Source of the DNA: Spirochaetota bacterium
GTDB taxonomy: Bacteria > Spirochaetota > Spirochaetia > Treponematales > Rectinemataceae
DNA length: 34,276 nt
Direction: 5' to 3'
Assembly: GCA_029778945.1 (NCBI GenBank)
Contig: JAKPBN010000417.1
Location: forward strand, 1 to 34,276
Below are positions 13,007 through 30,489 of the stretch, one piece after another (the first letter of the stretch is position 1; the number at the start of each line of letters is the position of its first letter). Position numbers and translations under genes: made by a program. The notes under the pieces were generated by a model. The model did no database searches and was not told the DNA's origin. It worked only from the letters and a program-made list of their open reading frames with translations.

Positions 13007-13034
13007 GCCCCTGGCCTGCCTAGGTTCCTAGAAT

Positions 13035-13060
13035 GGCGGCCCTGGAAGGGGCCGCCTTTT
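13035..13060 (+). terminator. Intrinsic terminator between the two flavoprotein genes
   Basis: GGCGGCCC (13035-13042) pairs exactly with GGGCCGCC (13049-13056) around a six-base loop and is followed by TTTT. It lies 29 bases after the first flavoprotein stop, so much of that transcript probably ends here. The second gene may then be expressed by read-through or from its own promoter, which I could not locate confidently in 13061-13151. Confidence 0.75.
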
Positions 13061-13151
13061 CCCGCATCAAAGGACAAGCCGTGTCTCCGGGGCGCCACTA
13101 TCGAGGCTCTGGGAGGCGCAAGAAATTCGTAGTGATGAAATGGAGTTGAGC

Positions 13152-15493: not shown

Positions 15494-16690
15494 CTAGATC
15501 AGGGAGCGCTTCTTGCCGGCCTCGAGGAGGCCCTTGAGAGTCGCTCGGGGGTCCTTGGACTTGCACAGGAGGATCATCGCCGCGATGATGTAGGGCTTGT
15601 AGCTCGCCTCCATGTAGGTCTCGTCCCGGTAGCGGTCAAAGACCGAGGCCGCGACCTCGCCGGCCTTGCAGGACACGTCGGTGATGTCCGCGGGGAGGCA
15701 ATGCATGTACAAGGCCTTCCCGTTTTTGGTGAGCTTCATCTTCTCCTCGGTGCACTCCCAGTCCTTGAACCTGGCGTTGTTCTCCAGGCACTTCTTCTCC
15801 AGGTCCTTGAGGCCGGCGGAGTCGTTGGCGTGGAGGAGGGGAACCCTCTGCTGCATCACGGAGAAGGGGGCCCAGGACTTGGGATAGACGATGTCGGCGC
15901 CCTTGAAAGCCTCATCCATGGAGTTGACGTGGCTGAACTTGCCACCCGAGGCCGCAGCCTGCTTCTTGGAGAGCTCGACGACCTCGGGGATGAGGTCATA
16001 GCCCTCGGGGTGGGCGAGGACGACGTCCATACCCAGGCGGGTGGCCAGTCCTATGATGCCCTGGGGCACCGAGAGGGGCTTGCCGTAGGAGGGGGAATAG
16101 GCCCAGGTCATGGCGATCTTCTTGCCCTTGAGGCCCTCGAGGCCGCCAAAGCGGTGGGAGAGGTGGAGGAAGTCCGCCATGGACTGGGTGGGGTGGTCGA
16201 TGTCGGACTGGAGGTTGATCACCGCGGGCCGGGAGGGGAGGACTCCGGCCTTGACGCCCTCGTCGAGGGACTTGGCCACCTCGCGCTGGTAGGTGTCGCC
16301 CTCGCCCAGGTACATGTCGTCCCGGATGCCCACGGCCTCGGTGAGGAAGGAGATCATGTTGGCGGTTTCCCTCACGGTCTCGCCATGGGCGATCTGGCTC
16401 TTGCCCTCATCCAGGTCCTGGACATAGAGGCCCAGGAGGTCGCAGGCCGAGGCGTAGGAAAAGCGGGTCCGGGTGGAATTGTCCCGGAAGTTGGAGACCG
16501 CGATCCCCGAGTCCCAGAGGCGGGTGGAGACGTTGGAGTCCCGCAGGGCCCGCAGGGCGTCGGCCACGATAAAGGTGGCCTCGATCTCGTCCCGGCTCTT
16601 TTCCCAGGTAAGGAGGAAGTCCTTGCCCAGCATGTCGATCTTCTTGCCCGCGAGCCCGTCTATCAGGGCGCCTAGCTCTTTCTGGTTCAT
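15494..16690 (-). CDS. ygeW: Knotted carbamoyltransferase YgeW
   Basis: A 398-residue member of the aspartate/ornithine carbamoyltransferase superfamily. The carbamoyl-phosphate loop is STRTR (72-76) and MHCLPADITD (about 337-346) marks the second substrate region. Long insertions and the motif NLQSDIDHPTQSMADFLHL match the YgeW type, found next to selenium-linked xanthine dehydrogenases and purine catabolic genes. It is thought to remove a carbamoyl group from a purine-derived intermediate as carbamoyl phosphate, which can yield ATP through carbamate kinase; no kinase gene is in the window. ATG 16690 follows AAGGAG at six bases; the frame is open 13 codons upstream. It is the last gene of the cluster, 96 bases after xdhD. 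Confidence 0.9.
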   Translation of the reverse strand: MNQKELGALIDGLAGKKIDMLGKDFLLTWEKSRDEIEATFIVADALRALRDSNVSTRLWDSGIAVSNFRDNSTRTRFSYASACDLLGLYVQDLDEGKSQIAHGETVRETANMISFLTEAVGIRDDMYLGEGDTYQREVAKSLDEGVKAGVLPSRPAVINLQSDIDHPTQSMADFLHLSHRFGGLEGLKGKKIAMTWAYSPSYGKPLSVPQGIIGLATRLGMDVVLAHPEGYDLIPEVVELSKKQAAASGGKFSHVNSMDEAFKGADIVYPKSWAPFSVMQQRVPLLHANDSAGLKDLEKKCLENNARFKDWECTEEKMKLTKNGKALYMHCLPADITDVSCKAGEVAASVFDRYRDETYMEASYKPYIIAAMILLCKSKDPRATLKGLLEAGKKRSLI

Positions 16691-16748
16691 CCTTGTCTCC
16701 TTCCGAATGCCGGTATCCGCCTTGGGCAAGATACCTCTTTGTCGTGGA

Positions 16749-16786: not shown

Positions 16787-19672
16787 CTAGAGCTTGCCCA
16801 TGGCCCGCAGCACGCGCTCCGGCGTAAAAGGCCATTCCCTCACCCAGGCCCCGCAGGCGTCGTGGATGGCTATGGCTATGGCCGGGGCCGCGCCGTTCAG
16901 GCTTATCTCAGAGACTGACTTGCCGCCGTAGGGGCCTACCGGATCGTCCACGGGCACAAACTCCACGCGGAAGTCCGCGGGCAGGTCCCTGACCGTGGGG
17001 ATCTTGTAGTCGATGAAGTTGGGGTTGACGCAGTTGCCCTTGTCATCAAAGAGCATCTCCTCGTAGAGGGCATGGCCCACGGCCTTGAGGATGCCGCCAT
17101 AGACCTGGCCCAGGGCGAGCTCGGGGTTGATCGGGGTGCCGCAGTCCTGGTAGGCGTGGTAGCGCTCGAGGACTATCTCCCCGGTGCGCTGGTTGACCGC
17201 CACCTGGGCGAAGTGGGCCCCGTAGGGAAAGGCCGAGTGCTCGGTCTTGAAGGAGCCAAAGCCGCAGAGCTCCCCCGGGCCCTCGCCCGTGGTGGTGAGG
17301 TGGCCAAGCTCGGCATAGCTCATCGTCCGGCCCTTCTTGCCGGTGACAATGCCCCCGGGCAGGATGGACAGGTCGGCCACAGGCTCCCCGAGGATAGTGG
17401 CCACCTCGGCGAGGATGCGGCGCTTCAGGTCCTCGGCGGCGAGCTTGGCCGCGCTGCCTGAGAAGAAGGTGCCCGAGCTCGCGTAGGCCCCCTTGTCAAA
17501 GGGCGTCGTGTCCGTGTCCCCGGAGACCACGGCAAAGTCCGCAGGATCGGCCATCAGGACCTCGGCCGCGACCTTGGCCGCCAGGGTGTCGAGGCCCGTG
17601 CCCAGGTCTGCCCCGCCGGAGAGGAGCATAAAGCCCCCGTCGGCCATGAGGCGGATCTCCGCGTTGGCCGCATCCAGGCCCGGGAGGCCCGAGCCCTGCT
17701 GGATGACCACCGATCCCTTGCCCCGGCGCCAGCCCTCGGGGGTCACGGCCTCGTGGGGGCTGGCCCAGGAGAGGCTCTTCCTGCCCCGGGCGATCATGTC
17801 CCCCAGGCCGCATTCGCCCAGGGTCACCGCGGTTCCCTCGCGGCCCTCCCCGAGGCTCCTCAGGATCTCGAGGCGGCTCCCCGAGCGGACCCGGTTTTTC
17901 TCGATCAGGTCGAGCTGGTCCATTCCGAGCTCGGAGGCCAGCTCGGCCAGGGCCGTTTGGAGGGCAAAGGAGCCCTGGGGGGCCCCATAGCCCTGGTAGG
18001 CCCCCGAGGAGGGCAGGTTGGTGTACCAGGTCTTCACGTCAAAGTGGACATTGTCGCAAAGAAGGAGGGGCAGGCTCTTGGAGCAGGCATTCATGGGCAC
18101 CGTGAGGCAGTGCTGGCCGTAGGCCCCGGTGTCCGCGTTGACCCGCATCTCGATGGCGGTCAACTTGCCGTCCCTCTTGGCCCCGAGCTTGACCCCGATC
18201 CTCATGGGATGCCGGGTCCTGGCGGCGATGAATTCCTCGGCCCTGGTGTAGCGGAAGAAGACCGTCTTGCCCGTCTTCCAGGTCAGGTAGGCAGCCACCT
18301 CCTCGAGGCAGATGTCCTGCTTGACCCCAAAGCCACCGCCAACCCTTTCCTTGATCACGTGGACCCGGTTCTCCGCAATGCCCAGGACCCGGGCGGTTAT
18401 GCGCCGGAGGTGCCAGGGCACCTGGGTGGAGGCGTGCATCACAAGGCGGCCCCCCTCCATGCGGGTCAGGACGACATGGGGCTCCATGGGCGTGCAGTGG
18501 ACCCGGGTGGCAGAGTACTCGCGCTCGACCACGACCTCGGCCTCGGCAAAGCCCTTGGCGGTGTCGCCTATCCCGCCGGCCGTGGAGGCCGCCAGGTTGC
18601 GCGCCGGATCCGCGCCGATGGGGAACTGGTAGATGATCGGGTGGTCGGGGCCGCCATAGGCGCCCTCGTCGCCGGAGGTCGCCGATCCCGCCGGGGCCGA
18701 GCCGGCCTTGTAGATAACCTTGCCGGCGTGGACCGGGGCCGCCCCGGGGGCCGAGGCCTCCTCCATGGACAGGACTGGCTTCAGGACCTCGTAGTCCACC
18801 TCGATCGCGGCCAGGGCCGCCAGGGCCTCGGCCTCGCTGTCCGCGAGGACGGCCGCCACCCGGTCACCCACAAAGCGCAGGACCCGGGAGAACATGCGGA
18901 AGTCGTGGGGGGAGGGCTCGGGAAAGCCCTGGCCGGCGGTGTTGTAGACGAGGTCGGGGGTGTTTTCCCAAGTGAGGACCTCGTGGACCCCGGGCATGGC
19001 CTGGGCCCGGCTCGTGTCAATGCTCTTGATAAAGGCCCTGGCGTGGGGGGAGCCTGAGATCTTGAGGACGAGGGCGTCCGCCGGGACCTTGTCCTCCACA
19101 AAGGCGCGCTCTCCCCGGGCCAAGGCCGGGCCATCGAGCTTTTCCCTGCACTTGCCCACATGGCGCAGCTCAGGTCGGAATTCCTCCGCCGGGACCACGA
19201 CGAGGCCGGGGTCCTTGAGCCGGGCCGAGGCGAGGAGGGCCGCGGCGTAGAACTGCTCGTAGCCCGTGCAGCGGCACATGATGCTCGAGAGGGCATCGGT
19301 TATGTCGGCCCGGCTAGGCTCGGGCCGGCGCTCCAGGAGCTTGTGGAGGGCGAGGACTACCGCGGGGGTGCAATAGCCGCACTGGACGCAGCCCGTCTCG
19401 ACCAGGGCCGCCTGGACGACGGAGAGCTTCCTGTCCTTGGAGAAGAAGTCGACGGTATAGACCTCTGCCCCCTCGGCTTGGGGGGATAGGACCTGGCAGG
19501 AGTTGACGATCTTCCCGTCGAGGATCACCGAGCAGAGGCCGCAGGAGCCCTCGCCGTCACAGCCATTGCGGACCGTGGAGATGCCCGCCTTCCTGAGAAG
19601 GTCCCGGAGAGAGAGAGAGGGCTCGGCCTCGAGGCCGACCGGCCGGCCGTTGAGCCTGAAATTCACCTTCAT
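16787..19672 (-). CDS. xdhD: XdhD-like xanthine/purine hydroxylase, fused Fe-S and molybdenum subunits
   Basis: A 961-residue fusion like E. coli XdhD and the selenium-dependent xanthine dehydrogenases. Residues 1-75 form a plant-type [2Fe-2S] ferredoxin (C38, C44, C47, C59). Residues 85-150 hold the second [2Fe-2S] domain (CGYC at 98-101, CRC at 133-135). The rest is the molybdopterin-binding part, with GGGFGVKQD and a late GGKSVSEISLNGAAP where SE aligns with the catalytic glutamate region. There is no FAD domain; the adjacent YgfM-like gene supplies it. The reaction would be hydroxylation of a purine such as xanthine to urate, or the reverse under reducing conditions. ATG 19672 has GAGGAG upstream and overlaps the FAD gene stop by four bases. 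Confidence 0.9.
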   Translation of the reverse strand: MKVNFRLNGRPVGLEAEPSLSLRDLLRKAGISTVRNGCDGEGSCGLCSVILDGKIVNSCQVLSPQAEGAEVYTVDFFSKDRKLSVVQAALVETGCVQCGYCTPAVVLALHKLLERRPEPSRADITDALSSIMCRCTGYEQFYAAALLASARLKDPGLVVVPAEEFRPELRHVGKCREKLDGPALARGERAFVEDKVPADALVLKISGSPHARAFIKSIDTSRAQAMPGVHEVLTWENTPDLVYNTAGQGFPEPSPHDFRMFSRVLRFVGDRVAAVLADSEAEALAALAAIEVDYEVLKPVLSMEEASAPGAAPVHAGKVIYKAGSAPAGSATSGDEGAYGGPDHPIIYQFPIGADPARNLAASTAGGIGDTAKGFAEAEVVVEREYSATRVHCTPMEPHVVLTRMEGGRLVMHASTQVPWHLRRITARVLGIAENRVHVIKERVGGGFGVKQDICLEEVAAYLTWKTGKTVFFRYTRAEEFIAARTRHPMRIGVKLGAKRDGKLTAIEMRVNADTGAYGQHCLTVPMNACSKSLPLLLCDNVHFDVKTWYTNLPSSGAYQGYGAPQGSFALQTALAELASELGMDQLDLIEKNRVRSGSRLEILRSLGEGREGTAVTLGECGLGDMIARGRKSLSWASPHEAVTPEGWRRGKGSVVIQQGSGLPGLDAANAEIRLMADGGFMLLSGGADLGTGLDTLAAKVAAEVLMADPADFAVVSGDTDTTPFDKGAYASSGTFFSGSAAKLAAEDLKRRILAEVATILGEPVADLSILPGGIVTGKKGRTMSYAELGHLTTTGEGPGELCGFGSFKTEHSAFPYGAHFAQVAVNQRTGEIVLERYHAYQDCGTPINPELALGQVYGGILKAVGHALYEEMLFDDKGNCVNPNFIDYKIPTVRDLPADFRVEFVPVDDPVGPYGGKSVSEISLNGAAPAIAIAIHDACGAWVREWPFTPERVLRAMGKL

Positions 19673-20475
19673 GCCAGCTCCTCAGCCCCATAGAGGGCTT
19701 CCGCCACCAGGGCAGCTGCCCTGAGCTCCTTGTAGGCCGAGGAGCCCCGCCAATCCGTCCGGGCATGGAAGAGGGGCCTGGCCGCGGCCTCGATGGCCTC
19801 CCGGGAGGGCAGGGGCCGGCCCTCGAGGAGGCGGGAAAGCTCGGGGAAGAGCCTGGCCCGGGGGCCTAGGCCACCCAGGGCGAGCCGGACTCCCTCCAGG
19901 GCTCCCGTGGGAGCAAGGCGATAGGCGACCGAACAGGTCAGGACCGAGACGTCGCAGGCAGTCCTGGCCAGGCGGGCAAAGGCCGCCCGCGCGCCGGCCA
20001 TGAGGGGCAGCTCGAGCTCGAGGACAAGGCCCTGGGGGGCCTCGAGCCAGGCCTCGAGGGACATGGACTCGGCCTTGGCTGATCTCGTCGAGACCCTCGC
20101 GGTGGCGCCCAAGGCCAGGAGGACGGGGATCAGGCTCGCGCAGGACTTGGCCGCCCCAAGGTTGCCGCCCACGCTCGCCCGGTTGCGCACATTGCGGTTG
20201 ACCATGGATAGGGCCGCGTCCTTCAGGGCCTTGGGCAGGCCCTCGGCCTCCACCAGGTCCTGGAAGCTGGCCCCGGCGCCGATCCGCAGCATCCCGCCGC
20301 CGAGCTCGATCCTCCGGGGAAGGAGGCGGGAAAGGTCGATCAGGGCCTCGGGCTTGTCCCGGTAGTCCCCCGCGAGGAGGAAGGTTCCTCCCGCGAGATA
20401 GGCGGCGCCGGGATGGCTGGCCTTGAGGGAAAGGGCCTCCTCCAGGGAGGCGGGTCGTAGGTATTCTTGCACCAT
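19669..20475 (-). CDS. ygfM: YgfM-like FAD-binding subunit of molybdenum hydroxylase
   Basis: A 268-residue FAD-binding subunit of the CoxM/XdhB type. AAYLAGGTFLLAGDY (about 24-38) corresponds to the flavin phosphate loop and RNRASVGGNLGAAKSCA (about 97-113) to the second FAD motif. It passes electrons between the [2Fe-2S] centres of the XdhD-like enzyme and an acceptor. It lies directly before xdhD with a four-base overlap and starts one base after the upstream deaminase stop, so the three genes are translationally coupled. The ATG at 20475 has only a weak upstream purine run, consistent with coupling. Confidence 0.87.
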   Translation of the reverse strand: MVQEYLRPASLEEALSLKASHPGAAYLAGGTFLLAGDYRDKPEALIDLSRLLPRRIELGGGMLRIGAGASFQDLVEAEGLPKALKDAALSMVNRNVRNRASVGGNLGAAKSCASLIPVLLALGATARVSTRSAKAESMSLEAWLEAPQGLVLELELPLMAGARAAFARLARTACDVSVLTCSVAYRLAPTGALEGVRLALGGLGPRARLFPELSRLLEGRPLPSREAIEAAARPLFHARTDWRGSSAYKELRAAALVAEALYGAEELA

Positions 20476-20476
20476 G

Positions 20477-21853
20477 CTAGTTTAGCCCTGCCTTGGAAAG
20501 GAGTCGGCGGGAGGCCTTGTCGGCTTCCCTGCGGATCTCCTCCTCGTCTGCGCCAACAAGGCGCCGGTTATTGACAATTAGTTTCCCGTCCACGATGACA
20601 TGGTCGGCCCCGTGGTCGTAGCCCGAGAACAGGAGGGAGGCCACGGGGTCAGACATGGCCCCGGCATATTCCATCCTGGTGACGTCGAAGAGGGCAAGGT
20701 CGGCGACCCAGCCCTCGGCTATGGCGCCCACCTTGTCGAAGCCCAGGATCCTGGCCCCGCCCTGGGTCGCGATGGAGAGGACTTCCCGGGCCGTGATCCC
20801 CGCGGAGCCGTAGCGCACCCGCTGGAGGAGGAGGGCCTGCCTGGCCTCGCCGAGCATGTCCGAGGAGTCGTTCGAGGCCGAGCCGTCGACGGCGAGGCCC
20901 ACGGGCACTCCCCGGTCGATCATCTCCCTCACCCTGGCGACGCCCGAGCCCAGGCGCATGTTGGAGGAGGGACAGTGGGCGACCCCGGTCTGGGTCCGGG
21001 CCAGGAGATCGAGCTCCTCGTCATTGAAGTGGATCCCGTGGGCGAACCAGACATCCTGGCCAATGAAGCCGCAGTCCTCCATGAGGCGCAGGGGGCGGCG
21101 ACCGTACATCTTGACGCAGAAGTCGTCCTCGTCGGCGGTCTCCGCGAGGTGGGTGTGGAGCCTGACGCCCCGTTTGCGGGCCAGGTCGGCGGCGTCCCGC
21201 ATGGACTTCTCGGAGACCGAGAAGGGCGAGCAGGGGGCCAGGGCGACCTTGCGCATCGCGTCCGGGGCCGGGTCATGGTACTTCCCGATGGTCTCGTCGC
21301 AGGCCGAGAGGATCGCGTCCTCGTCCTGGACCACCGAGTCCGGGGGCAGCCCCCCGTCCTTCTTGGACCGGGACATGGAGCCTCGGGTCGGCGCAAAGCG
21401 CAGGCCCAGCCGGGAGGCGGCCTTGAACTGCAGGCCCGGGAGGTCGTCCTTGAAGCCCTGGGGGTAGAGGTAGTGGTGGTCGGTGGAGAGGGTGCAGCCT
21501 GTCTTGGCCAGCTCGGCCATCGCGAGCATGGAGGACCAGTAGACCGCCTCCTCGTCCACTCCCTTCCAGACCTCGTAGAGATAGAGGAGCCAGTCGAAGA
21601 GCTTGGCGTTCTGGACCGCCGGGAGGTTCCTGGTCAGGGTCTGGTAGAAGTGGTGGTGGGTGTTCACCAGGCCCGGCAGGACCACGTGGCGCGAGGCATC
21701 CACCACCTGGGCGCCCGCGGGAACCTTTAGCCCCGGACCTATCCGCGCTATGCGGTTTCCCTCGATGAGGATGTCGAGGCCGCCGCGGTCCACGGCCCCG
21801 GCCCCTCCGCCGATCGAGAGACCGACGGAGAGGCAGTCCTTGAGGAGGATCAA
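20477..21853 (-). CDS. Amidohydrolase similar to 8-oxoguanine deaminase
   Basis: A 458-residue ATZ/TRZ-type amidohydrolase with a metal-binding HxH in LPGLVNTHHHFYQTLTR (about residue 60), a histidine in LHTHLAET, one in WFAHGIHF, and the catalytic aspartate in LAVDGSASND. The VNTHHHFYQTLTR...TDHHYLYP pattern resembles characterised 8-oxoguanine deaminases more than SsnA, which is encoded separately at 25937-27328. Deamination of 8-oxoguanine gives urate, which fits the cluster. Guanine or another aminopurine is possible. The likely start is TTG at 21853, preceded by GAGGTGG and overlapping the preceding gene stop (TTGA). The frame is open further upstream without homology. Confidence 0.78.
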   Translation of the reverse strand: MILLKDCLSVGLSIGGGAGAVDRGGLDILIEGNRIARIGPGLKVPAGAQVVDASRHVVLPGLVNTHHHFYQTLTRNLPAVQNAKLFDWLLYLYEVWKGVDEEAVYWSSMLAMAELAKTGCTLSTDHHYLYPQGFKDDLPGLQFKAASRLGLRFAPTRGSMSRSKKDGGLPPDSVVQDEDAILSACDETIGKYHDPAPDAMRKVALAPCSPFSVSEKSMRDAADLARKRGVRLHTHLAETADEDDFCVKMYGRRPLRLMEDCGFIGQDVWFAHGIHFNDEELDLLARTQTGVAHCPSSNMRLGSGVARVREMIDRGVPVGLAVDGSASNDSSDMLGEARQALLLQRVRYGSAGITAREVLSIATQGGARILGFDKVGAIAEGWVADLALFDVTRMEYAGAMSDPVASLLFSGYDHGADHVIVDGKLIVNNRRLVGADEEEIRREADKASRRLLSKAGLN

Positions 21854-23307
21854 CGAGCCACCTCGGCGTTGAACTCCTCGATCATGGTGTCGAGGGCCTT
21901 GGCCTGGGCATGGAGGCCGCCCCAGTAGGCCCTGTGGTCGTCCCACTGGGCCCTGAGCTCGGGAAGCTGCTTGCCAAGCTGCTCGATCCAGGAGAAGTAC
22001 TTGAGGTTGTGGATGCGGCGCTTGTCCATCTGGGAGAGCTCAAGGACATGGTCGATCTGGATGCCCCGGAGCATGTCGAGGTCCCGGTCGGCCTGGCGCT
22101 GGTCATACTTGCCGCGCTCGGCGTTGAGCTCGTCCAGGCGGGAGCCATACATGTCCATGGAGTCGGTAAAGACCGTAAAGACCACATCGTGCTCATCGAG
22201 CTCGTAGTACTTGGCGAACTTGATCGCCGCCAGGGTGTTGCCCACCCCGGAGATGCCCAGCCAGTTGAGCTTGGAGAGGAGCTCGGGGCCGTAGCCGGAC
22301 TCGGCGAGGACCTTCTTTCCGGCCTCGTCGTTGAAGAGGCGGATGAGGCGGATCGGGAGCTCGTCGTCCACGCCGACCGCGGCGTCGGTGTCCCGGATGT
22401 TGTGGATCCAGGGGATGTGCTTGTCTCCGATGCCCTCGATGCGGTGGTCCCCAAAGCCGTTCTCAAGGATGGTCGGGCACTGGAGGGCCTCGGCCACGGC
22501 GACCTTCGCGCCGGGGAAGCTGTCCCGGAGGTAGGAGCCGGCCCCGAGGGTGCCGGCCGAGCCCGAGGAGAAGACACCGCCGGCGATGCGGTCCCCGGGG
22601 CGGGCGATGGCCTTGAAGGCCTCCTCCATCGCGGGGCCGGTCACGGAATAGTGCCAGAGGTGGTTGGGCAGCTGGTCGAACTGGTTGAAGATCACGGCGT
22701 CGGGCCGGGTCCTCTCAAGCTCGATGCACTTGTCGAAGATCTCCTTGACATTGGACTCGCAGCCCGGGGTCGCGATGACTTCCTCGGCCATGGTCTTGAG
22801 CCAGGCGAAGCGCTCCTTGGACATGCCCGCGGGGAGGATGGCCACCGAGGGGCAGGAGAGGAGGCGGGAGATGTAGGCGCCGCCCCGGCAATAGTTGCCC
22901 GTGGAGGGCCAGACGGCCTTCTTCGTCGTGGGGTCGAAGCGGCCGGTGACAAGCTCGGGCAGGAGGCAGGAGAGGGCGGCCCCGACCTTGTGGGCTCCCG
23001 TGGGGAACCACTTGCCGGAGATGCCCACGATGCGCGCCTTGGTGCCGGTCAGCGAGGAGGGGAGCTCCACGAAGTTGACGCCGCCGAACTTCCCGCCCTT
23101 CTCGACGGGCTCGTTGTGCCAGGTGACCCGGAAGAGGTTCCTTGGGTTCACGTCCCAGAGGCCGATCCCGGAGAGCTCCTTCTTGATCGACTCGGGCACC
23201 TTGGAGGGGTCCCTCATCTGGGCATAGGTGGGGAGGATGATGCCCTTTTCCCGGCAGCGCTCGATGTTCTTCTTCCTCTGCTTCTCTTCAACCTTGAGAT
23301 CTATCAT
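21850..23307 (-). CDS. Fold-type II PLP enzyme of unknown reaction (485 aa)
   Basis: A 485-residue pyridoxal-phosphate enzyme of the tryptophan-synthase-beta/cysteine-synthase fold. The Schiff-base lysine lies in PTGAHKVGAA (K107), the substrate-binding loop is STGN (135-138), and a glycine-rich phosphate loop follows (GGVFSSGSAGTLGAG). It is longer than YgeX diaminopropionate ammonia-lyase (about 400 residues) and does not look like it; it has a roughly 100-residue C-terminal helical extension. Position between the YgeY/threonine-synthase-like genes and the deaminase suggests a beta-elimination or ammonia-lyase step on the last purine-derived amino acid, an inference. ATG 23307 is preceded by AAGGTGG; a GTG at 23316 is an alternative. 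Confidence 0.78.
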   Translation of the reverse strand: MIDLKVEEKQRKKNIERCREKGIILPTYAQMRDPSKVPESIKKELSGIGLWDVNPRNLFRVTWHNEPVEKGGKFGGVNFVELPSSLTGTKARIVGISGKWFPTGAHKVGAALSCLLPELVTGRFDPTTKKAVWPSTGNYCRGGAYISRLLSCPSVAILPAGMSKERFAWLKTMAEEVIATPGCESNVKEIFDKCIELERTRPDAVIFNQFDQLPNHLWHYSVTGPAMEEAFKAIARPGDRIAGGVFSSGSAGTLGAGSYLRDSFPGAKVAVAEALQCPTILENGFGDHRIEGIGDKHIPWIHNIRDTDAAVGVDDELPIRLIRLFNDEAGKKVLAESGYGPELLSKLNWLGISGVGNTLAAIKFAKYYELDEHDVVFTVFTDSMDMYGSRLDELNAERGKYDQRQADRDLDMLRGIQIDHVLELSQMDKRRIHNLKYFSWIEQLGKQLPELRAQWDDHRAYWGGLHAQAKALDTMIEEFNAEVAR

Positions 23308-23370
23308 GTATTCCACCTTCCTTCCAGTATTGGGACCCGCCTACCGCAGGCTCCGTAAAGCATTCAATCA

Positions 23371-23520
23371 TTCACCACGGAGACACGGAGGACACGGAGA
23401 AAGAGGCAGGAAGAATAGAATAAAATATTACTATATCTATTAATTTCTCCCGCTTTTCCTCTCGGAGAATGGCGTTGGGCCTCTCCTTTCCGTGATCTCC
23501 ATGCCTCCGTGGTAAATTCA
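23371..23520. repeat. CACGGAG inverted-repeat element in an operon gap
   Basis: The left arm (23371-23400) contains three spaced CACGGAG units. The right arm (23482-23520) is its imperfect reverse complement over nearly 40 bases (TTTACCACGGAGGCATGGAG read on the minus strand). Between them lie about 80 bases with an AT-rich core (23416-23446), unlike the surrounding GC-rich genes. Similar CACGGAG intergenic repeats are known in many bacterial genomes. The element fills most of the only long gap (23308-23539) in the purine operon. It could be a MITE-like insertion. It might terminate, process or re-start the transcript. I could not identify a convincing promoter in it. Confidence 0.7.
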
Positions 23521-23539
23521 TTTATAGGTTCTCCTGTTT

Positions 23540-24730
23540 CTATTCCAGTCCGAGGCCCTTCATGGCGGACTTGATGTCCTTGAGGCCTGAGCCGGTTATC
23601 AGCAGCACCACGATCGCGTCCTTGGCTATCTCTCCCCGGGCCTTGAGGAAGCCCGCCAGGGCCGCGCTCGAGGAAGGCTCGGCGAAGAGGCCTGCCTTTG
23701 ACGCCAGGATGCCCTGGGCCTCCAGGATCTCCTCGTCCGAGACCACCAGGGCCCGGCCCCCATGCTTTTTCAGCTTGGAGAGGGCGTGGGCGCCGTTGCG
23801 GGGCACATCGACACTGATGGAGTCCGCGACCGTAGAGGACGAGACAGGCCTGCCAAAGCCGCCTTCCGCCAGGGCCGTGGCTATGGCCTTCGAGCCCTCG
23901 GCCTGGGCTGCCCAGATCCTGGGCATGCGCTTTATGCGGCCGAGCTTGATGAGGTCCTCAAAGCCCTTGTAGACGCCGGCTATGATGACCCCGTCCCCGG
24001 TGGGCACAAAAACCTCGTCCGGGGAGGCCCAGCCCTCGCCAGGGCCTGCGCCTCCGGCGGCGCCTAGTTGCTTTGCGATCTCAAAGGACACGGTCTTCTT
24101 GCCCTCGATGGTGAGGGGGTTGTAGGCCGTGTTCCTGGAGAGGGTGCCGGTCTTGTCCGAGTAGGCGAGGGACTCCTCGAAGGCCTGGTCATAGTTGCCC
24201 TTGACCGGATAGAGGTCGCCCCCGTACTGGAGGACCTGGACCCTCTTGGCCACCGGCGCCGCCTCGGGGAGGAAGACCGTGATCTTAAGTCCCGCCGCCG
24301 CCCCGACCCCAGCCATGGAGGAGGCCGCGTTGCCCGTGGAGGCCAGGACTATCTCCTTGATCCCCTCCCGCCGGGCAAAGGCGGCCACAAGGTAGCTCGC
24401 CCTGTCCTTGAATGAGCCCGTGGGCTCGCAGGTGTCATCCTTGAGGAAGAGCCCGGGAAAGCCCAGTTCGGCCCGCAATCGCTCGGGTGCCCAAAGTGGG
24501 GTATCCCCCACAGGAATGGCCGGGAAATAGCGGGGCTCGACCGGGAGGGGTATCGCATAACGGGTGTCCAGATAGTCGACCCCGCTAGGTTCCCCCTCCC
24601 AGACGCACTCGAGGACACCCTCGAGGGGCATGTCTACTCCGCGCTTGGCGGCGCAGGGACCGCAGAGGTAGCGGCTCTTCTCCAAAGGGTATTCAGCCCC
24701 GCAGGAGGGGCAGCGGTAGGACCATTTCAT
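23540..24730 (-). CDS. Threonine-synthase-like PLP enzyme with N-terminal zinc ribbon
   Basis: A 396-residue fold-type II PLP enzyme. An N-terminal zinc ribbon (C7, C10, C23, C26) precedes a threonine-synthase-type domain with the PLP lysine in GSFKDR (K108), the substrate loop STGNAA (131-136) and a phosphate loop VPTGDGVIIAG. Such proteins are annotated threonine synthase, but many with this zinc ribbon act on other beta-substituted amino acids. In this operon it is more likely a purine-pathway lyase than threonine synthesis, as no hom or thrB gene accompanies it. Start ATG 24730 overlaps the ygeY stop by four bases. The upstream open frame is a shadow of ygeY. Confidence 0.82.
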   Translation of the reverse strand: MKWSYRCPSCGAEYPLEKSRYLCGPCAAKRGVDMPLEGVLECVWEGEPSGVDYLDTRYAIPLPVEPRYFPAIPVGDTPLWAPERLRAELGFPGLFLKDDTCEPTGSFKDRASYLVAAFARREGIKEIVLASTGNAASSMAGVGAAAGLKITVFLPEAAPVAKRVQVLQYGGDLYPVKGNYDQAFEESLAYSDKTGTLSRNTAYNPLTIEGKKTVSFEIAKQLGAAGGAGPGEGWASPDEVFVPTGDGVIIAGVYKGFEDLIKLGRIKRMPRIWAAQAEGSKAIATALAEGGFGRPVSSSTVADSISVDVPRNGAHALSKLKKHGGRALVVSDEEILEAQGILASKAGLFAEPSSSAALAGFLKARGEIAKDAIVVLLITGSGLKDIKSAMKGLGLE

Positions 24731-25935
24731 GCGTGCTTGGCCAGGGAATAGGCCAGGGAGGCATAGAAGGCCGAGGCTATCTCGAGGTCGTCGATCCGGT
24801 TGATCTCGTTGGGGGCATGGGCCTGGGACTCGTCTCCGGGGCCAAAGCCAATGCAGGGGATCTGGTGCCGGCCGCAGACGGCCACGCAGTTGGTGGAGAA
24901 GGTCCACTTGTCCACGACGGGCTTCTTGGAGTAGAGGCCTACATAGGCTTCCTCTCCGGCGGCCACGAGGGGGTGGTTGGCGGGGATCTTCCAAGTGGGG
25001 AAGTAGAGCTCCTGCTTGTAGAGGAGGCCCGTGTAGGCGGGCTGGGCATACTCGGGCATCTTCACAGAGAACTTGTCCACTCCGGCGGCCGTGAGGGCCT
25101 TTTCGACCTGGGAGATGGCGAGCTTGTCGTCCTCCCCCCAGGTGAGGCGGCGGTCGCAGTAGAGCATGGCCTGGTCGGGGACGGCGCACTGGGAGGGGCC
25201 GTGGACCTTGATCTGGGAGACCACGATCGTGCCCTTGCCGAGGAAGCCGTCATCGTCGGGCTTGAGCTCGGTGTTGAGCTTCTCCAGGGCCAGGGCGGCC
25301 CGGGCGGCCTTGTAGGCGGCGCTCTCCCCGCGCTCGGGGGCCGAGCCGTGGCAGGAGATGCCCTTGATGTCTATCTGGATCTCCATGCGTCCCCGGTGGC
25401 CGCGGTAGAGCCTGCAGCTTGTGGGCTCCGTGGACACGAGGAAGTCGGGGACGAATTTCTCCTCCTCGATGAGGTATTTCCAGCAGAGGCCGTCGCAGTC
25501 TTCCTCGATGGTGGTAAAGGCGAACCAGACCGTGAAATCCCCGTCATAGGCCGCTTCCTTGAGGATCCGGGCCGCGGTGATCATCGAGGCGGCTCCGCCC
25601 AATTGGTCCGAGGAGCCCCGGCCATGGACAAGTCCGTCCTTTATGAGGCCCGAGTGGGGAGGGTTCTTCCACTGGCTGGGATCGCCAACCCCGACGGTGT
25701 CGATGTGGGCGTCAAAGACCAGCTTCTTCTTGCCCTTGCCCACCCGGCCAAGGAGGGACCCGAGGCCGTCGATATGGACATCCTCCATCCCGGCCTCTTC
25801 GCAGAGCTTCTTGAGGAGGAGGACCCTTTCCTTCTCAGTGCAGGAAAAACCCGGCACCTGGATCATCTTGGAGAGATTCTGCGCGCTGTAGTCCCGGTAC
25901 TTCTTCGCCTTCTCGAGAATGTCCTTGGAATTCAT
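24727..25935 (-). CDS. ygeY: YgeY family M20 metallohydrolase
   Basis: A 402-residue M20 peptidase/deacylase-type dizinc enzyme. Metal ligands are visible in FDAHIDTVG (H and the paired Asp), RGSSDQLGG (bridging Asp) and TTIEEDCDG (general-base glutamate), with GHRGRMEIQIDIKGISCHGS marking the lid domain. This is the YgeY selenium-metabolism-linked subfamily, a constant member of the anaerobic purine cluster, where it probably hydrolyses an amide of a ring-opened intermediate. ATG 25935 follows GAGGAG at five bases and lies one base after the ssnA stop. It overlaps the following threonine-synthase-like gene. Confidence 0.9.
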   Translation of the reverse strand: MNSKDILEKAKKYRDYSAQNLSKMIQVPGFSCTEKERVLLLKKLCEEAGMEDVHIDGLGSLLGRVGKGKKKLVFDAHIDTVGVGDPSQWKNPPHSGLIKDGLVHGRGSSDQLGGAASMITAARILKEAAYDGDFTVWFAFTTIEEDCDGLCWKYLIEEEKFVPDFLVSTEPTSCRLYRGHRGRMEIQIDIKGISCHGSAPERGESAAYKAARAALALEKLNTELKPDDDGFLGKGTIVVSQIKVHGPSQCAVPDQAMLYCDRRLTWGEDDKLAISQVEKALTAAGVDKFSVKMPEYAQPAYTGLLYKQELYFPTWKIPANHPLVAAGEEAYVGLYSKKPVVDKWTFSTNCVAVCGRHQIPCIGFGPGDESQAHAPNEINRIDDLEIASAFYASLAYSLAKHA

Positions 25936-25936
25936 G

Positions 25937-27328
25937 TTAGCTCCTCTCTTCCATACGTTTCCAGAGTCTTGCGGCCTCTTTCCTGGCCTTGGCGCCTATG
26001 GCCTCGGCGTCGAAAGCGGGTTTCCTGTCCTCTATGACAAATTTTCCATTGACCATCACTGACCTGACCGAGCGCGAGGAAAGGCCAAAGGCCAGGTGGC
26101 CGGCCAGGTTGCCGCCCTCGAGGGGGGTCGGGGCCTCGTAGTCCCAGAGCACGAGGTCGGCGGCCGCGCCTTTCTCGATCCGGCCATAGACGGCCGGCGC
26201 CCCGGAGCCGGCCCCGGCCGGATCGCAGGCAAAGTAGCGCTCCAGAAGACGGTTGCCCCGGTCGAGGCAAGCCAGGAACTGGTCGGGCCACCAGGGGCCC
26301 TGGGACTCGCGATGCCTGAAACAGGCAAAGCGGAATTCCTCGAGCATGTCGGCGCTCATCCCGTCCGTGCCCAGGACGACGTTGCGGTGGTCCGTAAGGA
26401 GGCCGTTGTAGCCGACGGCGTTGTTCATGTTGGACCGGGCATTGTGGGCCAGGAAGGCGTCCCTCTCGGCGATCAGCTCGACCTCGGAGGGGCTGAGCCA
26501 GACCCCGTGGCCCACAATGCTTTTGGGCGTGAGCAGGCCCGCTTTGTCCATGCGCACCGCCAGGTCGGCCCCGTAGCGGTGGCGGGAGTCGACGGCGTCG
26601 TATTTGTCCTCCCCGGCGTGGATGTGGGAGCCCCGGCCCGTGGTCCTCACGGCGTCTCCCAGGGCCCCGAGGGTCTCCTCCCCCAGGGTAAAGAGGGCAT
26701 GGCCGCCTATGGCCCCGTCCACGAGGGGGAAGGAAGAGCCTTCCTCGCCCCTGGTCCAGGCAGCCCTCTGGTGGTCGATCTCTCGGGCAAAGCGGATATT
26801 CTCCCTCACCCCGGCCCTGGCGCCCTCCATCCCGTTGCGGTCCGTGGTCTCGTAGCAGACCAGGCCCCGCAGGCCTATCGTGTCATAGGCCGATTTCAGC
26901 ACCGAGAGGCTGCCGTCGATGGCCTCGGGGCCGGCATGGTGGTCGACCACGCTGGTCACTCCGCAGGCCGCGGCGTCGGCCAGGCCCGCTAGGCCCGAGG
27001 CCTCGAGGATGGGCAGGTCGATGGCCCGGTCGAGGCGCCACCAAAGGTGGGCCAGTTGCTGGGCAAAGTCCTTGGAAGGCTTGATGTCGACCATGAGGCC
27101 CCGGGCCAGGGCGGAGTAGAGGTGGGTGTGGGAGCAGACGAGGCCCGGGGAGAGATAGGCCCCGCTTATCCTCCTGGCCCCGGGATGCCTGGCGGCCAGG
27201 CCCTGGCCGACCTCGAGGATGGTCGAGGCCGACCTTGGCCCCTTCGAGGCGTCCACGAGGACATCCATGGGAGGGGAAACCGAGGGCGGGGCAAAGGAGA
27301 TGACCCGGACACTTTCAAAGAGGATCAT
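25937..27328 (-). CDS. ssnA: SsnA family aminohydrolase
   Basis: A 463-residue amidohydrolase. It shows the SsnA hallmark GLVCSHTHLYSALARG (HxH metal site, about residues 64-79), LWWRLDRAID, VVDHHAGPEAIDGSLSVL, CYETTDRNG and the late TDGMSADML aspartate. SsnA sits beside ygfK and hyuA in E. coli and in anaerobic urate-degrading bacteria. It probably hydrolyses or deaminates a cyclic purine-derived intermediate; the exact reaction is not shown by sequence. The ATG at 27328 overlaps the ygfK stop (ATGA). It is distinct from the other amidohydrolase at 20477-21853. Confidence 0.9.
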   Translation of the reverse strand: MILFESVRVISFAPPSVSPPMDVLVDASKGPRSASTILEVGQGLAARHPGARRISGAYLSPGLVCSHTHLYSALARGLMVDIKPSKDFAQQLAHLWWRLDRAIDLPILEASGLAGLADAAACGVTSVVDHHAGPEAIDGSLSVLKSAYDTIGLRGLVCYETTDRNGMEGARAGVRENIRFAREIDHQRAAWTRGEEGSSFPLVDGAIGGHALFTLGEETLGALGDAVRTTGRGSHIHAGEDKYDAVDSRHRYGADLAVRMDKAGLLTPKSIVGHGVWLSPSEVELIAERDAFLAHNARSNMNNAVGYNGLLTDHRNVVLGTDGMSADMLEEFRFACFRHRESQGPWWPDQFLACLDRGNRLLERYFACDPAGAGSGAPAVYGRIEKGAAADLVLWDYEAPTPLEGGNLAGHLAFGLSSRSVRSVMVNGKFVIEDRKPAFDAEAIGAKARKEAARLWKRMEERS

Positions 27329-30300
27329 GCCTTGCCTCCAAGCAGATAGGGATGTTCCCTAAGCACGGTCGCGGCCAGGGCGGCCATGGCCGCGGCCTCC
27401 TTGCTCACCGAGCCCGCGGGCACCTCGGAGAGGTCCCACTCCTCGTAGGAGATCACCGTGGCCGGACCGTCGGGCTGGGCCCGCAGGGCCAGCCTCGGCT
27501 TGGACTCCCCTTGGCGGGCATTGGAATCGAGGAGGATGGCAAAGCCCGCGTTGCGCGACGCCTCGAGGTCGGCCTTGGTGGCGAAGAGGGTGGGCTTGCC
27601 CCGGAAGGGCTCGCCGGTATAGGGGCAGAAGAAGCCGCAGTTTCCGCACTCGTTGCACAGGCCGTCGATGTGGAGGATCTGGAAGGCCTGGGAATAGGGG
27701 GCGGCCCCTGAGGCGGGAATGGCCATGTTGGCCCGGTTCGGGCAGACCTCCACGCAGCGGAGGCAGGCCGAGTCGCACTCTAGGCAGCGGATGGCCTCCC
27801 TGACCACGGCCTCGTCCCCGGTGTCCTCCAGGGGGAAGGTGAGGAGGCCCCGGCTGGCCAGGGCGGCCGGATCGGGCGCCGGGGCGACGTAGGCCCTCTC
27901 CTGCGGCTCGATCCCTGCCTTGCGCAGGATGGCATAGGCGGCCTTCTTGCCGTCGTGGATGGCCGCGATGATGGAGGCGGGGCCGCGCCTGGCGTCCCCT
28001 CCCACATAGACCCCGGGGGCCGTGGTGGCTTCCCGGCTTGCCTTGACGAGGAGGGGCTTGCCGTCGGGGCCAAGGCCCACCCCAAAGGAGGCAAGGAGGG
28101 CCGCGTCCACGGACTCGCCCAGGGCCTCCACGAGGAGCTCGCAGGGGAGCTCAAAGCACTCCTGGGAGGGCTTGGGGGAACGGCGCCCCGAGGCGTCCCT
28201 CTCGCCCAGGACCATGCGCCTGAGCTTGAGCCTGCCCGGGCTCGCCTCCTCGGGGAGGGCCAACTCCAGGAGCTCGGCGCCTTCCGCGAGGGCTTCCTCG
28301 ATCTCTTCCCGGTCCGCGGGCATCTCCGCCCGGGTGCGGCGATAGACAAGGCTGACCTTTTCCATGCCCGGGATCCGCAGGGCCGCCCTCACGGCGTCCA
28401 TGGCCGTATTGCCGCCCCCGGCCACGGCTACCCGCTTGAGGCCAGCGAAGGGAGAGGCCTTGCCCTCGGCCCGGGAGACCTCCTCGAGGAAGGCCAGGGC
28501 GTCGATTCGCCTGACGCCCTCGCCCTTAAGGTCCATGGACCTGGGCACCGGGGCCCCCGTGCCCAGGAATATGGCGTCAAAGCCCTGGTAGCGGAGGTCC
28601 GCCAGGTCCTTGGCCTTGGTCCCGAAGCGGAACTCGGCCCCTAGGCTCTTTATGCGGTCGATGTCGTAGGCGAGGTCCTCCCGGGTTATGCGGAAGCGCG
28701 GGATGACGTTGGCCGGCACCCCGCCGGGTCCCTCGGCCTCCTCAAAGACCGTGACCGGCGCGCCCCAGAGGCCCAGGTAATAGGCGCAGGCGAGGCCCGC
28801 GGGCCCGGCCCCCACGACGGCCACCCGGCCTGGGAAGGGGGCGGCGGTCCGCTTGCGGGCGGGGATCGAGGCCGCCCGGGAGCAGGCGAGCTTGACATCC
28901 CGGATGCGCACGGTGCCCTCGTAGTCGAGGCGGGAGCAGGCGGTCTGGCAGGAGTGGTCGCAGAGCACCCCCGTGATGCGGGGCAGGGGATTGTCCGTTA
29001 CAATGGTCTCGAGGGCCTCTTCCCAGGCCCCGGCCTCGCCCGAGGCGGCCTTGGCGGCCAGCCTCAGGTATTCCGGGACCTTCTGCTTCGCCGGGCAGGC
29101 CTCGATGCAGGGGGCGGCAAAGCAGTCGAAGACCGGCAGGGCGCGGTCGATGTGGGAGTCGGACTCCTTGAAGCCCTTGCGGTATTCCGGGCGCTCCAGG
29201 GCGGCCTCGGCCAGGGCCTCGAGCTTGCTAGGGTTCGGGCTGGCGCTCGACTTGGCGAGGGCCTTGGAGGCGGCCTCGGCCATGGGCAGGAAGCGCAGGT
29301 AGCCGCCGGGCTTGAGGACATCGGTGGCCACCGTCAGGGGACCGAGGCCGGCGTCGACGAGCTCGTAGGCGTTCAGGGCCTGGACCCCGCCGCAGTAGGA
29401 AAAGCGCTGGCCGAAATCGGGCAGGGCCTTGGCCAGGTCGGCGGCGAGCCTCACGGTGATCGGGAAGAGGGCCCGGCCGGACATGTAGCGCTCGCCCCCG
29501 GGGAGCCTTGTCCCCGTGTTGGCGTTGGCCAGGGTGTTGGAGAGCTTGATCCCAAAGCGCTGGCCCCTGGCCTTGGCCTTGGCCCTGAGGGTCTCGATGA
29601 GGCCCAGGGCGTCCTTCCACTGGAGGTCGTGCTCAAAGCTCTCGCGCTTGATCTCGATGTCCTTCCAGCCCGTGGTGTCCAGGATGGAGCGGGCCCGGTC
29701 ATAGCCAAGGAGGGTGGGGTTGAGCTTTACGTAGACATCAAAGCCCTTTTCCTCGATGAGGTAGGCGCCAATGCGCTGGATCTCCGCGGGGGGGCAGCCG
29801 TGCATGGTCGAGAGGGTCACCGAGTGGACCGGGGCCGGGGGGAAGTCGGAGAGGAGGGTCCTGGCCTTGGCGTGGGCGCCGGCCCCAAAGGCCTGGCGGA
29901 AGGAAGGGCCCTCCACAAAGGCCTCAAGATCGCGCATCGCGGCGGCCCAGAAGGCTCCCTGGGCGGGGCTGCGCATGCCCTCGAGGTAGGCGTCGACCTT
30001 GGGGCCCTTGATCCCGTCCAGGGTGTAGCCCACGGAGATGTTGAAGAAGAAGTCCCGGGGGCGGCTCGACCAGATGGAGGACAGGAGGTTGACCGCGATC
30101 CAGGACCGGAGGTATTCCTCCCTGGCCTCGGTGAGGGAAAGCTCGGTCGACCACTCGACATTGTGGCCCTCGTCCAGGGCGTCGATGCAGGGCTTCTCGA
30201 TGTCGAGGCTGTCGTTCTCCTGGACCGTCTTGAGCTCGAAGACCCTGGAGCCCGCGAGGTAGGCGGCCACCACGTTGGGCGCTATCTGGCTATGGGGGCC

Positions 30301-30489
30301 GGCGGCGGGTCCCACGGGGAGGCTGGCCTTTCCGCCCATCACCTCGAGGCCGGGGCTGGCGGCCTCGAGCTCAAAGCCCTCCCGGAAGGCCCTTTCGGGG
30401 ATCTCGAAGATCGAGGATTTGGCGCGGAATTCCCCGGCCATGCGCTCGAGGAGGGAAGAGAGGCCTGTCGTCGTCATTACCTTGCTCAC
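27325..30489 (-). CDS. ygfK: YgfK, large Fe-S flavoprotein oxidoreductase
   Basis: A 1054-residue cytosolic oxidoreductase often named putative selenate reductase subunit. The N-terminal half (about 1-440) resembles a dihydroorotate/dihydropyrimidine dehydrogenase barrel (PVGPAAGPHSQIAPN, ELKTVQENDSLDIEKPC). Next come a GltD-like Fe-S domain (cysteines about 455-520), an FAD fold (VVGAGPAGLACAYY, about 560) and an NAD(P)H fold (VAVAGGGNTAMDA, about 690). The C-terminus holds ferredoxin-like cysteine clusters (CLECDSACLRCVEVCP about 900, CNECGNCGFFCP about 945). It likely performs the reductive step on the purine ring using NAD(P)H. Start GTG 30489 overlaps the hyuA stop (GTGA); ATG 30477 is the alternative. 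Confidence 0.92.
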   Translation of the reverse strand: MSKVMTTTGLSSLLERMAGEFRAKSSIFEIPERAFREGFELEAASPGLEVMGGKASLPVGPAAGPHSQIAPNVVAAYLAGSRVFELKTVQENDSLDIEKPCIDALDEGHNVEWSTELSLTEAREEYLRSWIAVNLLSSIWSSRPRDFFFNISVGYTLDGIKGPKVDAYLEGMRSPAQGAFWAAAMRDLEAFVEGPSFRQAFGAGAHAKARTLLSDFPPAPVHSVTLSTMHGCPPAEIQRIGAYLIEEKGFDVYVKLNPTLLGYDRARSILDTTGWKDIEIKRESFEHDLQWKDALGLIETLRAKAKARGQRFGIKLSNTLANANTGTRLPGGERYMSGRALFPITVRLAADLAKALPDFGQRFSYCGGVQALNAYELVDAGLGPLTVATDVLKPGGYLRFLPMAEAASKALAKSSASPNPSKLEALAEAALERPEYRKGFKESDSHIDRALPVFDCFAAPCIEACPAKQKVPEYLRLAAKAASGEAGAWEEALETIVTDNPLPRITGVLCDHSCQTACSRLDYEGTVRIRDVKLACSRAASIPARKRTAAPFPGRVAVVGAGPAGLACAYYLGLWGAPVTVFEEAEGPGGVPANVIPRFRITREDLAYDIDRIKSLGAEFRFGTKAKDLADLRYQGFDAIFLGTGAPVPRSMDLKGEGVRRIDALAFLEEVSRAEGKASPFAGLKRVAVAGGGNTAMDAVRAALRIPGMEKVSLVYRRTRAEMPADREEIEEALAEGAELLELALPEEASPGRLKLRRMVLGERDASGRRSPKPSQECFELPCELLVEALGESVDAALLASFGVGLGPDGKPLLVKASREATTAPGVYVGGDARRGPASIIAAIHDGKKAAYAILRKAGIEPQERAYVAPAPDPAALASRGLLTFPLEDTGDEAVVREAIRCLECDSACLRCVEVCPNRANMAIPASGAAPYSQAFQILHIDGLCNECGNCGFFCPYTGEPFRGKPTLFATKADLEASRNAGFAILLDSNARQGESKPRLALRAQPDGPATVISYEEWDLSEVPAGSVSKEAAAMAALAATVLREHPYLLGGKA

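What the first reader, a model, noticed from the sequence alone, without database searches (positions are those of the whole stretch)
21850..24730. Two unusual PLP enzymes replace YgeX in the cluster
The canonical set includes the diaminopropionate ammonia-lyase YgeX. Here its place is held by a 485-residue PLP enzyme with a C-terminal extension, plus a zinc-ribbon threonine-synthase-like enzyme with no threonine-pathway neighbours. They may form a two-step or alternative route for the last amino-acid fragment, possibly on different substrates. The 485-residue protein looks functionally undescribed.
Basis: partly seen in the sequence, partly recalled or inferred. Interest (0 to 1): 0.65.

Follow-up and report, generated by a model that had tools for sequence, protein, structure and literature searches.

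The report
Two-enzyme stand-in for YgeX
In this spirochaete's uric-acid-breakdown operon, the single enzyme known to finish the job is missing, and its place is held by two other vitamin-B6 enzymes that travel together in many bacterial phyla, so the published pathway probably has a second, untested ending.

Summary
On the minus strand, a 396-residue zinc-ribbon threonine-synthase-like enzyme (ThrCl, 24730-23540) and a 485-residue cysteine-synthase/CBS-like enzyme (PLP485, 23307-21850) sit inside a complete reductive urate operon (xdh, hydantoinase, ygfK, ssnA, ygeY ... ygfM, xdhD, ygeW). No ygeX exists in the genome. ThrCl is not the housekeeping enzyme: a canonical thrC lies beside thrB elsewhere, and ThrCl lacks the Arg in the threonine-synthase phosphate loop.

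The two genes are co-inherited: 18 of 22 Spirochaetota genomes that hold either one hold both. Among 41 YgfK-positive genomes, PLP485 (18) and cut-off-level YgeX (20) never coincide, although most YgeX genomes are one lineage. In other phyla the pair sits beside other ureido-removing gene sets.

PLP485 carries an invariant GIG-Asp-Lys-His motif. Its Asp aligns with Asp232 of Fn1055, a solved cysteine (hydroxyl) lyase that makes L-serine. Pair operons in Betaproteobacteria end in L-serine dehydratase, and one Synergistales operon holds serine hydroxymethyltransferase.

Best reading: the pair replaces YgeX on 2,3-diaminopropionate; PLP485 may make serine and ThrCl may be the ammonia-lyase. No reaction was tested. 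In Anaerolineae the pair is common, often without urate genes nearby.

The parts
31874..34156 (-). xanthine-dehydrogenase-type molybdenum subunit (XdhB-like), start of the operon
   Evidence: TIGR02965 726 bits, below its cut-off of 849.5
30486..31907 (-). hydantoinase/allantoinase-like amidohydrolase, in the HyuA role by position
   Evidence: PRK06189 335 bits and TIGR03178 332 bits, both below cut-off
27325..30489 (-). ygfK, reductive dearomatisation flavoenzyme
   Evidence: TIGR03315 1016.7 bits, over its cut-off of 835
25937..27328 (-). ssnA aminohydrolase
   Evidence: PRK07203 464.7 bits, over its cut-off of 444
24727..25935 (-). ygeY ureido hydrolase (M20)
   Evidence: PRK13004 477 bits, over its cut-off of 321
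23540..24730 (-). ThrCl: 396-aa zinc-ribbon threonine-synthase-like PLP enzyme, one half of the pair
   Evidence: PALP 1.2e-68; PRK08197 209.8 bits, below its cut-off of 303; AlphaFold2 pLDDT 91.7, pTM 0.92; K108, Cys7/10/23 invariant in 34 sequences
23308..23539 (-). 232-bp gap between the two enzymes, with an imperfect inverted repeat
   Evidence: seen in the sequence
21850..23307 (-). PLP485: 485-aa cysteine-synthase/CBS-like PLP enzyme with a conserved C-terminal helical extension, other half of the pair
   Evidence: PALP 9.4e-15; AlphaFold2 pLDDT 90.4, pTM 0.92; nearest solved folds beta-cyanoalanine synthase Z 34.4, CBS Z 33.8, Fn1055 Z 33.3; D295 aligns with Fn1055 D232
20477..21852 (-). 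8-oxoguanine deaminase-type amidohydrolase, overlapping the end of PLP485
   Evidence: PRK08203 606.8 bits, over its cut-off of 532
19669..20475 (-). ygfM-like FAD subunit
   Evidence: TIGR03312 112.5 bits, below its cut-off of 241.5
16787..19672 (-). xdhD-like Mo/Fe-S subunit
   Evidence: TIGR03313 1147 bits, over its cut-off of 1101.9
15494..16729 (-). ygeW knotted carbamoyltransferase
   Evidence: PRK07200 685.8 bits, over its cut-off of 453

Best explanation
ThrCl and PLP485 together form an alternative end of the reductive urate pathway. They dispose of 2,3-diaminopropionate (DAP), which YgeX alone turns into pyruvate and ammonia in E. coli. Shown by sequence: ygeX is absent, both catalytic lysines are invariant, and the two genes are co-inherited and sit in urate operons. 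Inferred: PLP485 is a fold-type-II beta-replacement enzyme in which Asp295 activates water, so DAP + H2O gives L-serine + NH3, the way Fn1055 turns cysteine into serine. ThrCl is the ammonia-lyase of the pair, acting on serine or on the DAP isomer that PLP485 does not take, and giving pyruvate; where L-serine dehydratase or serine hydroxymethyltransferase sits in the operon, the serine goes there. My split: 0.7 that the pair replaces YgeX on DAP or its direct product, 0.35 that PLP485 makes serine, 0.5 that ThrCl is an ammonia-lyase.
For: No ygeX in the genome. In 247 Spirochaetota genomes 18 of 20 PLP485-positive genomes are YgfK-positive (Fisher p 3e-14), and within 41 YgfK-positive genomes PLP485 and over-cut-off YgeX never coincide (0 both, 18 PLP485 only, 20 YgeX only, 3 neither). 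ThrCl and PLP485 coincide in 18 of 22 genomes with either. The two PLP485 genomes without ThrCl (G106, G118) hold a diaminopropionate-ammonia-lyase-family protein over the PRK08206 cut-off, so ThrCl fills the YgeX slot. YgeX is absent from 36 of 38 PLP485-bearing genomes, nearly all from other phyla. ThrCl or PLP485 sits next to three different ureido-removal sets: YgeW+YgeY; aspartate/ornithine-carbamoyltransferase-like enzymes + carbamate kinase; and AllC-like + nitrilase-fold carbamoylases. Serine enzymes adjoin the pair: SdaA in 4 Betaproteobacteria loci, GlyA between ThrCl and PLP485 in L072. D295 aligns with the D232N site of Fn1055, which makes L-serine from L-cysteine (PMC12940168); GIGDKH is kept even in 42% identical homologues. 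hhalign aligns ThrCl RNTAY with YgeX QDTAW at D189.
Against: No activity data. The pair is common in Anaerolineae (117 of 199 genomes hold both), and 22 of 76 named loci show PLP485 with neither ThrCl nor a ureido/hydantoin gene nearby. Most YgeX-positive YgfK genomes are one lineage (family f22), so the exclusion statistic is not phylogenetically independent. G116 and G137 have YgfK but neither YgeX nor PLP485. If ThrCl were a serine dehydratase, SdaA in the same operon would be redundant; this genome also has its own SdaA. Both proteins carry Thr where YgeX has Asp120.
Confidence: 0.5

Rival explanations
1. Stereochemical split: YgeX takes both DAP isomers, whereas here one enzyme takes D-DAP and the other L-DAP, each by direct beta-elimination to pyruvate and two ammonia. 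No serine is formed.
For: Explains why two PLP enzymes are co-inherited. Neither has the YgeX Asp120, which by my recollection of the E. coli enzyme handles the D-isomer, so a single one may not do both. YgeX works on both isomers (PMC12507026); the configuration of the intermediates is an open question (PMC12990295).
Against: Does not predict the Fn1055-type water-activating Asp in PLP485 nor SdaA and GlyA beside the pair. PLP485 persists beside a DAP ammonia-lyase relative in G106 and G118.
Confidence: 0.22
2. The pair has a general amino-acid function (for example making or breaking serine or cysteine) that is not part of urate breakdown and sits in the operon only because urate nitrogen and carbon feed it.
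For: Pair present in most sampled Anaerolineae; many PLP485 loci have no urate or ureido genes within about 10 kb.
Against: In Spirochaetota PLP485 occurs in 18 of 41 YgfK-positive and only 2 of 206 YgfK-negative genomes. Of 44 loci with both genes near each other, 38 also hold a ureido or hydantoin gene. ygeX is missing, so something must remove DAP.
Confidence: 0.2
3. ThrCl is a true threonine synthase and PLP485 a true cysteine synthase or tryptophan synthase carried along by chance.
For: Nearest solved relatives by sequence and fold are threonine synthases and cysteine synthase/CBS.
Against: Below all NCBIfam cut-offs; the Arg of the threonine-synthase NP-x-R-x-EG loop is absent in 34 of 34 ThrCl; the genome has separate thrC-thrB, cysK and TrpB-like genes.
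Confidence: 0.04
4. ygeX exists in this organism but lies in an unassembled gap, so nothing is replaced.
For: The genome is a MAG in 504 contigs, 94.7% complete.
Against: ygeX is also absent, with PLP485 present, in 11 other YgfK-positive Spirochaetota genomes, several 95-99% complete, and from 36 of 38 PLP485-bearing genomes sampled by name.
Confidence: 0.03

Closest known systems
YgeX, diaminopropionate ammonia-lyase (E. coli b2871; TIGR03528)
   Same: Fold-type-II PALP enzyme at the end of the same gene set; ThrCl aligns with it over 254 columns (hhalign E 9.9e-12) and shares an [N/D]-T-A-[Y/W] loop.
   Different: Neither protein matches TIGR03528 at E 0.001; both have Thr where YgeX has Asp120; two proteins instead of one.
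Fn1055 cysteine (hydroxyl) lyase of Fusobacterium nucleatum (PDB 5B53, 5B55)
   Same: Same CysK/CBS-type fold (Z 33.3, 2.8 A over 314 residues); Asp295 of PLP485 falls on Asp232, the D232N site; Gln and Ser/Thr-Gly-Asn substrate loop kept.
   Different: About 24% identical; PLP485 has roughly 70-80 more residues at the C-terminus, a TGAHK lysine loop, and sits in ureido/urate operons rather than acting on cysteine.
Threonine synthase, archaeal/Thermus type (1UIM, 2ZSJ, 6CGQ; plant 2C2B)
   Same: Overall fold of ThrCl (2C2B Z 47.1, 2.3 A over 373 residues) and 33-35% identity to bacterial threonine synthases.
   Different: NPxRxEGQK loop changed to NPxTxEGKK (Thr, Met or Leu), so the Arg is lost in 34 of 34; no thrA/thrB neighbours; a separate thrC next to thrB in the genome.
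Reductive uric acid pathway of E. coli and C. difficile (PMC12507026)
   Same: XdhD-YgfM, YgfK, SsnA, a hydantoinase, YgeW and YgeY all present in one operon.
   Different: YgeX replaced by the pair. The published network marked YgeX by the generic PF00291, which would also colour this pair.

Membership tests
YgeX / diaminopropionate ammonia-lyase | Match to TIGR03528 over its cut-off of 532 bits | tested here: not met
   No match at E 0.001 for either protein or anywhere in the genome
YgeX / diaminopropionate ammonia-lyase | PLP lysine (K77) plus Asp120 in the TDGN loop | tested here: not met
   Lysine present (K108, K107), but Asp120 position is Thr132 in ThrCl and Thr136 in PLP485
YgeX / diaminopropionate ammonia-lyase | DAP to pyruvate activity | not testable with these tools
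   No assay possible
Threonine synthase (ThrCl) | NCBIfam equivalog cut-offs | tested here: not met
   TIGR00260 146 of 167.1 bits; PRK08197 209.8 of 303
Threonine synthase (ThrCl) | Arg in the NPxRxEG loop, taken from memory as the substrate phosphate ligand | tested here: not met
   Thr, Met or Leu in 34 of 34 ThrCl; Arg in the aligned bacterial threonine synthases
Threonine synthase (ThrCl) | Only thrC of the genome, or next to thrA/thrB | tested here: not met
   A separate thrC over cut-off lies next to thrB on contig C66
Cysteine synthase / CBS (PLP485) | Fold-type-II CysK/CBS fold | tested here: met
   Z 31-34 over about 300 residues to CysK, CBS and beta-cyanoalanine synthase
Cysteine synthase / CBS (PLP485) | NCBIfam cysK/cysta_beta cut-offs | tested here: not met
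   70.9 of 351 bits and 50.6 of 510 bits
Cysteine (hydroxyl) lyase Fn1055-like (PLP485) | Asp at the Fn1055 D232 position | tested here: met
   D295 invariant in 52 of 52 homologues; aligns with the residue changed in the D232N chain
Cysteine (hydroxyl) lyase Fn1055-like (PLP485) | beta-replacement giving L-serine | not testable with these tools
   Needs enzyme assay
Tryptophan synthase beta (PLP485) | TIGR00263 match | tested here: not met
   No trpB match at E 0.001 for PLP485; a TrpB-like protein is encoded elsewhere
Reductive urate gene set | ygfK, ssnA, ygeW, ygeY and xdhD over their cut-offs in one operon | tested here: met
   All five over an NCBIfam cut-off

The most novel reading that the evidence does not exclude
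PLP485 founds an undescribed enzyme family, a diaminopropionate hydroxyl-lyase that turns DAP into L-serine. Urate carbon would then enter serine, glycine and one-carbon metabolism, and this would be a second ending of the reductive urate pathway that pairs with a threonine-synthase-derived ammonia-lyase across many phyla.
Probability: 0.3. Interest if true: 0.75.

Novelty: new variant of a known kind. Interest (0 to 1): 0.58.

Why it matters
The reductive urate pathway was resolved only in 2025 and is of interest for gout and gut purine balance. Its last step rests on YgeX, and the published distribution map marked YgeX by the whole PALP family, which cannot tell YgeX from this pair. If the pair is the alternative ending, the pathway's distribution and end products change for Spirochaetota, Chloroflexota, Halanaerobiales and some Betaproteobacteria, and a very conserved, unnamed PLP enzyme gets a testable function: one assay with DAP decides between pyruvate and serine.

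Tried and rejected
ygeX hidden elsewhere in the genome: rejected. Housekeeping threonine or cysteine synthesis: rejected, since separate thrC-thrB, cysK and a TrpB-like gene exist. A tryptophan-synthase identity for PLP485 because of the TGAHK motif: no TrpB match. One region request failed for length and was repeated. Papers on YgeX structure and on threonine-synthase phosphate ligands were not in the library; the roles of Asp120 and of the loop Arg are from memory, although K77, D120 and D189 match the residue numbers in the sequence. Searches for a paper linking DAP to serine by beta-replacement found none. I considered albizziin as a direct PLP485 substrate (urea as leaving group) and dropped it here, since ygeY precedes ThrCl in the operon. 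Heteromer formation of the two proteins was not modelled. The hydantoinase call at 30486-31907 rests on sub-cut-off matches and position.

Full report
What is there. The window is the whole of contig C232 of a Spirochaetota MAG (kin named as Spirochaetaceae or Spirochaetota). On the minus strand, from 34156 down to 15494, runs one operon: xdh molybdenum subunit, hydantoinase-like amidohydrolase, ygfK, ssnA, ygeY, ThrCl, PLP485, 8-oxoguanine deaminase-like, ygfM, xdhD, ygeW. ygfK, ssnA, ygeY, xdhD and ygeW are over an NCBIfam cut-off; the hydantoinase, ygfM and XdhB-like calls are weaker. This is the gene set of the reductive urate pathway shown in vitro for E. coli and C. difficile (PMC12507026): urate to yanthine (XdhD-YgfM), ring reduction and opening (YgfK, SsnA), hydantoin opening (HyuA), removal of two ureido groups (YgeW, YgeY), then 2,3-diaminopropionate (DAP) to pyruvate by YgeX.

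The missing piece. YgeX is not in the window nor in the 4.07-Mb genome. Five PALP proteins are encoded: CysK, a TrpB-like protein, a canonical ThrC beside ThrB, ThrCl and PLP485. So the last two are extra, not housekeeping.

Co-inheritance. In 247 Spirochaetota genomes, 41 carry YgfK over cut-off, 20 carry PLP485 and 20 carry ThrCl. Eighteen PLP485 genomes are YgfK-positive (p 3e-14), and none of the 41 holds both PLP485 and an over-cut-off YgeX; 20 hold YgeX only, 18 PLP485 only, 3 neither. Most of the YgeX genomes are one family (f22), so the p value overstates independence. Six PLP485 genomes carry a weaker YgeX relative; in the two that lack ThrCl (G106, G118) that relative lies at a urate locus and passes the PRK08206 cut-off. 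ThrCl and PLP485 coincide in 18 of 22 genomes with either. In Anaerolineae 117 of 128 PLP485-family genomes also hold ThrCl, adjacent in 38 of 73 close orthologues. They therefore act as a unit, and ThrCl rather than PLP485 looks like the YgeX substitute.

Neighbourhoods. Of 76 named loci from many phyla, 44 have ThrCl near PLP485, and 38 of those also have a ureido- or hydantoin-cleaving gene within about 11 kb; ygeX appears in none. The ureido-removing genes differ: YgeW and YgeY in Spirochaetota; aspartate- and ornithine-carbamoyltransferase-like proteins with carbamate kinase in Chloroflexota, Atribacterota and some Spirochaetota; AllC-like and nitrilase-fold carbamoylases in Betaproteobacteria. 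What these share, by inference, is a diamino C3 product. In four Betaproteobacteria loci an L-serine dehydratase follows PLP485, directly in L035, and in L072 serine hydroxymethyltransferase lies between ThrCl and PLP485. Against exclusivity, 22 loci have PLP485 with neither ThrCl nor such genes in the flanks held.

The proteins. PLP485 is unusually conserved (72% mean column identity over 52 sequences). AlphaFold2 gives a confident model (pLDDT 90.4); the core matches beta-cyanoalanine synthase, CBS and Fn1055. The stretch 284-296, with invariant G284, G286, H288, R289 and E291-K296, is the one poorly modelled part, perhaps a lid. In it D295 aligns with D232 of Fn1055; the mutant chain 5B55 shows Asn at that very column. 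Fn1055 turns L-cysteine into L-serine and H2S, with Asp232, Ser74, Thr73 and Gln147 as key residues (PMC12940168); PLP485 keeps the Ser-Thr-Gly-Asn loop and Gln209. GIGDKH is kept in Rhizobium and Bosea homologues at 42% identity. ThrCl has a threonine-synthase fold (Z 47.1 to 2C2B) but lost the loop Arg in 34 of 34 sequences and has an RNTAYNP loop that hhalign places on YgeX QDTAWEG, with N200 on D189.

Mechanism and certainty. Shown: absence of ygeX, presence and conservation of both enzymes, co-inheritance, operon placement. Inferred: substrate DAP, water addition by PLP485 to give L-serine, ammonia-lyase action of ThrCl. The main rival is two stereospecific DAP lyases; the second is a general amino-acid role, favoured by the wide presence in Anaerolineae. 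No assay was possible.

Verdict. It is a new variant of a known pathway, with one enzyme family that I could not find described in the held libraries.

Noticed in passing
10955-15398 (+): Two flavocytochrome-c/fumarate-reductase-like flavoproteins with FMN_bind domains lie beside ygeW and converge on it; they may be an electron sink or unrelated.
   Followed up: no
L045, L059, L064, L068, L124, L134, L135: An aspartate-carbamoyltransferase-like and/or an ornithine/YgeW-like protein sit with carbamate kinase YqeA near the pair, suggesting ATP recovery from one or both ureido groups.
   Followed up: partly
L028, L029, L031, L032, L034, L035: Betaproteobacteria pair operons carry AllC-like and nitrilase-fold carbamoylases (only an AllC-like fragment is seen in L029); four of them also an L-serine dehydratase.
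   Followed up: partly
L039-L042: PLP485 followed by an 8-oxoguanine deaminase-like gene and preceded by an XdhC-family maturation factor, without ThrCl in the flank held.
   Followed up: no
23308-23539: The gap between ThrCl and PLP485 holds an imperfect inverted repeat (CCACGGAGGCATGGAG ... CTCCGTGTCTCCGTGG).
   Followed up: no
PMC12507026, Fig. 3g legend: The published SsnA network marks YgeX by PF00291, which covers all PALP enzymes and so may count ThrCl or PLP485 as YgeX.
   Followed up: partly
window 15494-16729: ygeW is present but no carbamate kinase gene (yqeA) was identified in the window, so the fate of the carbamoyl phosphate is unclear.
   Followed up: no
L160 (Rhodoferax genome G316): This genome holds both the ThrCl-PLP485 operon and, on another contig, a ygeX over cut-off next to a hydantoinase-like gene.
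   Followed up: no
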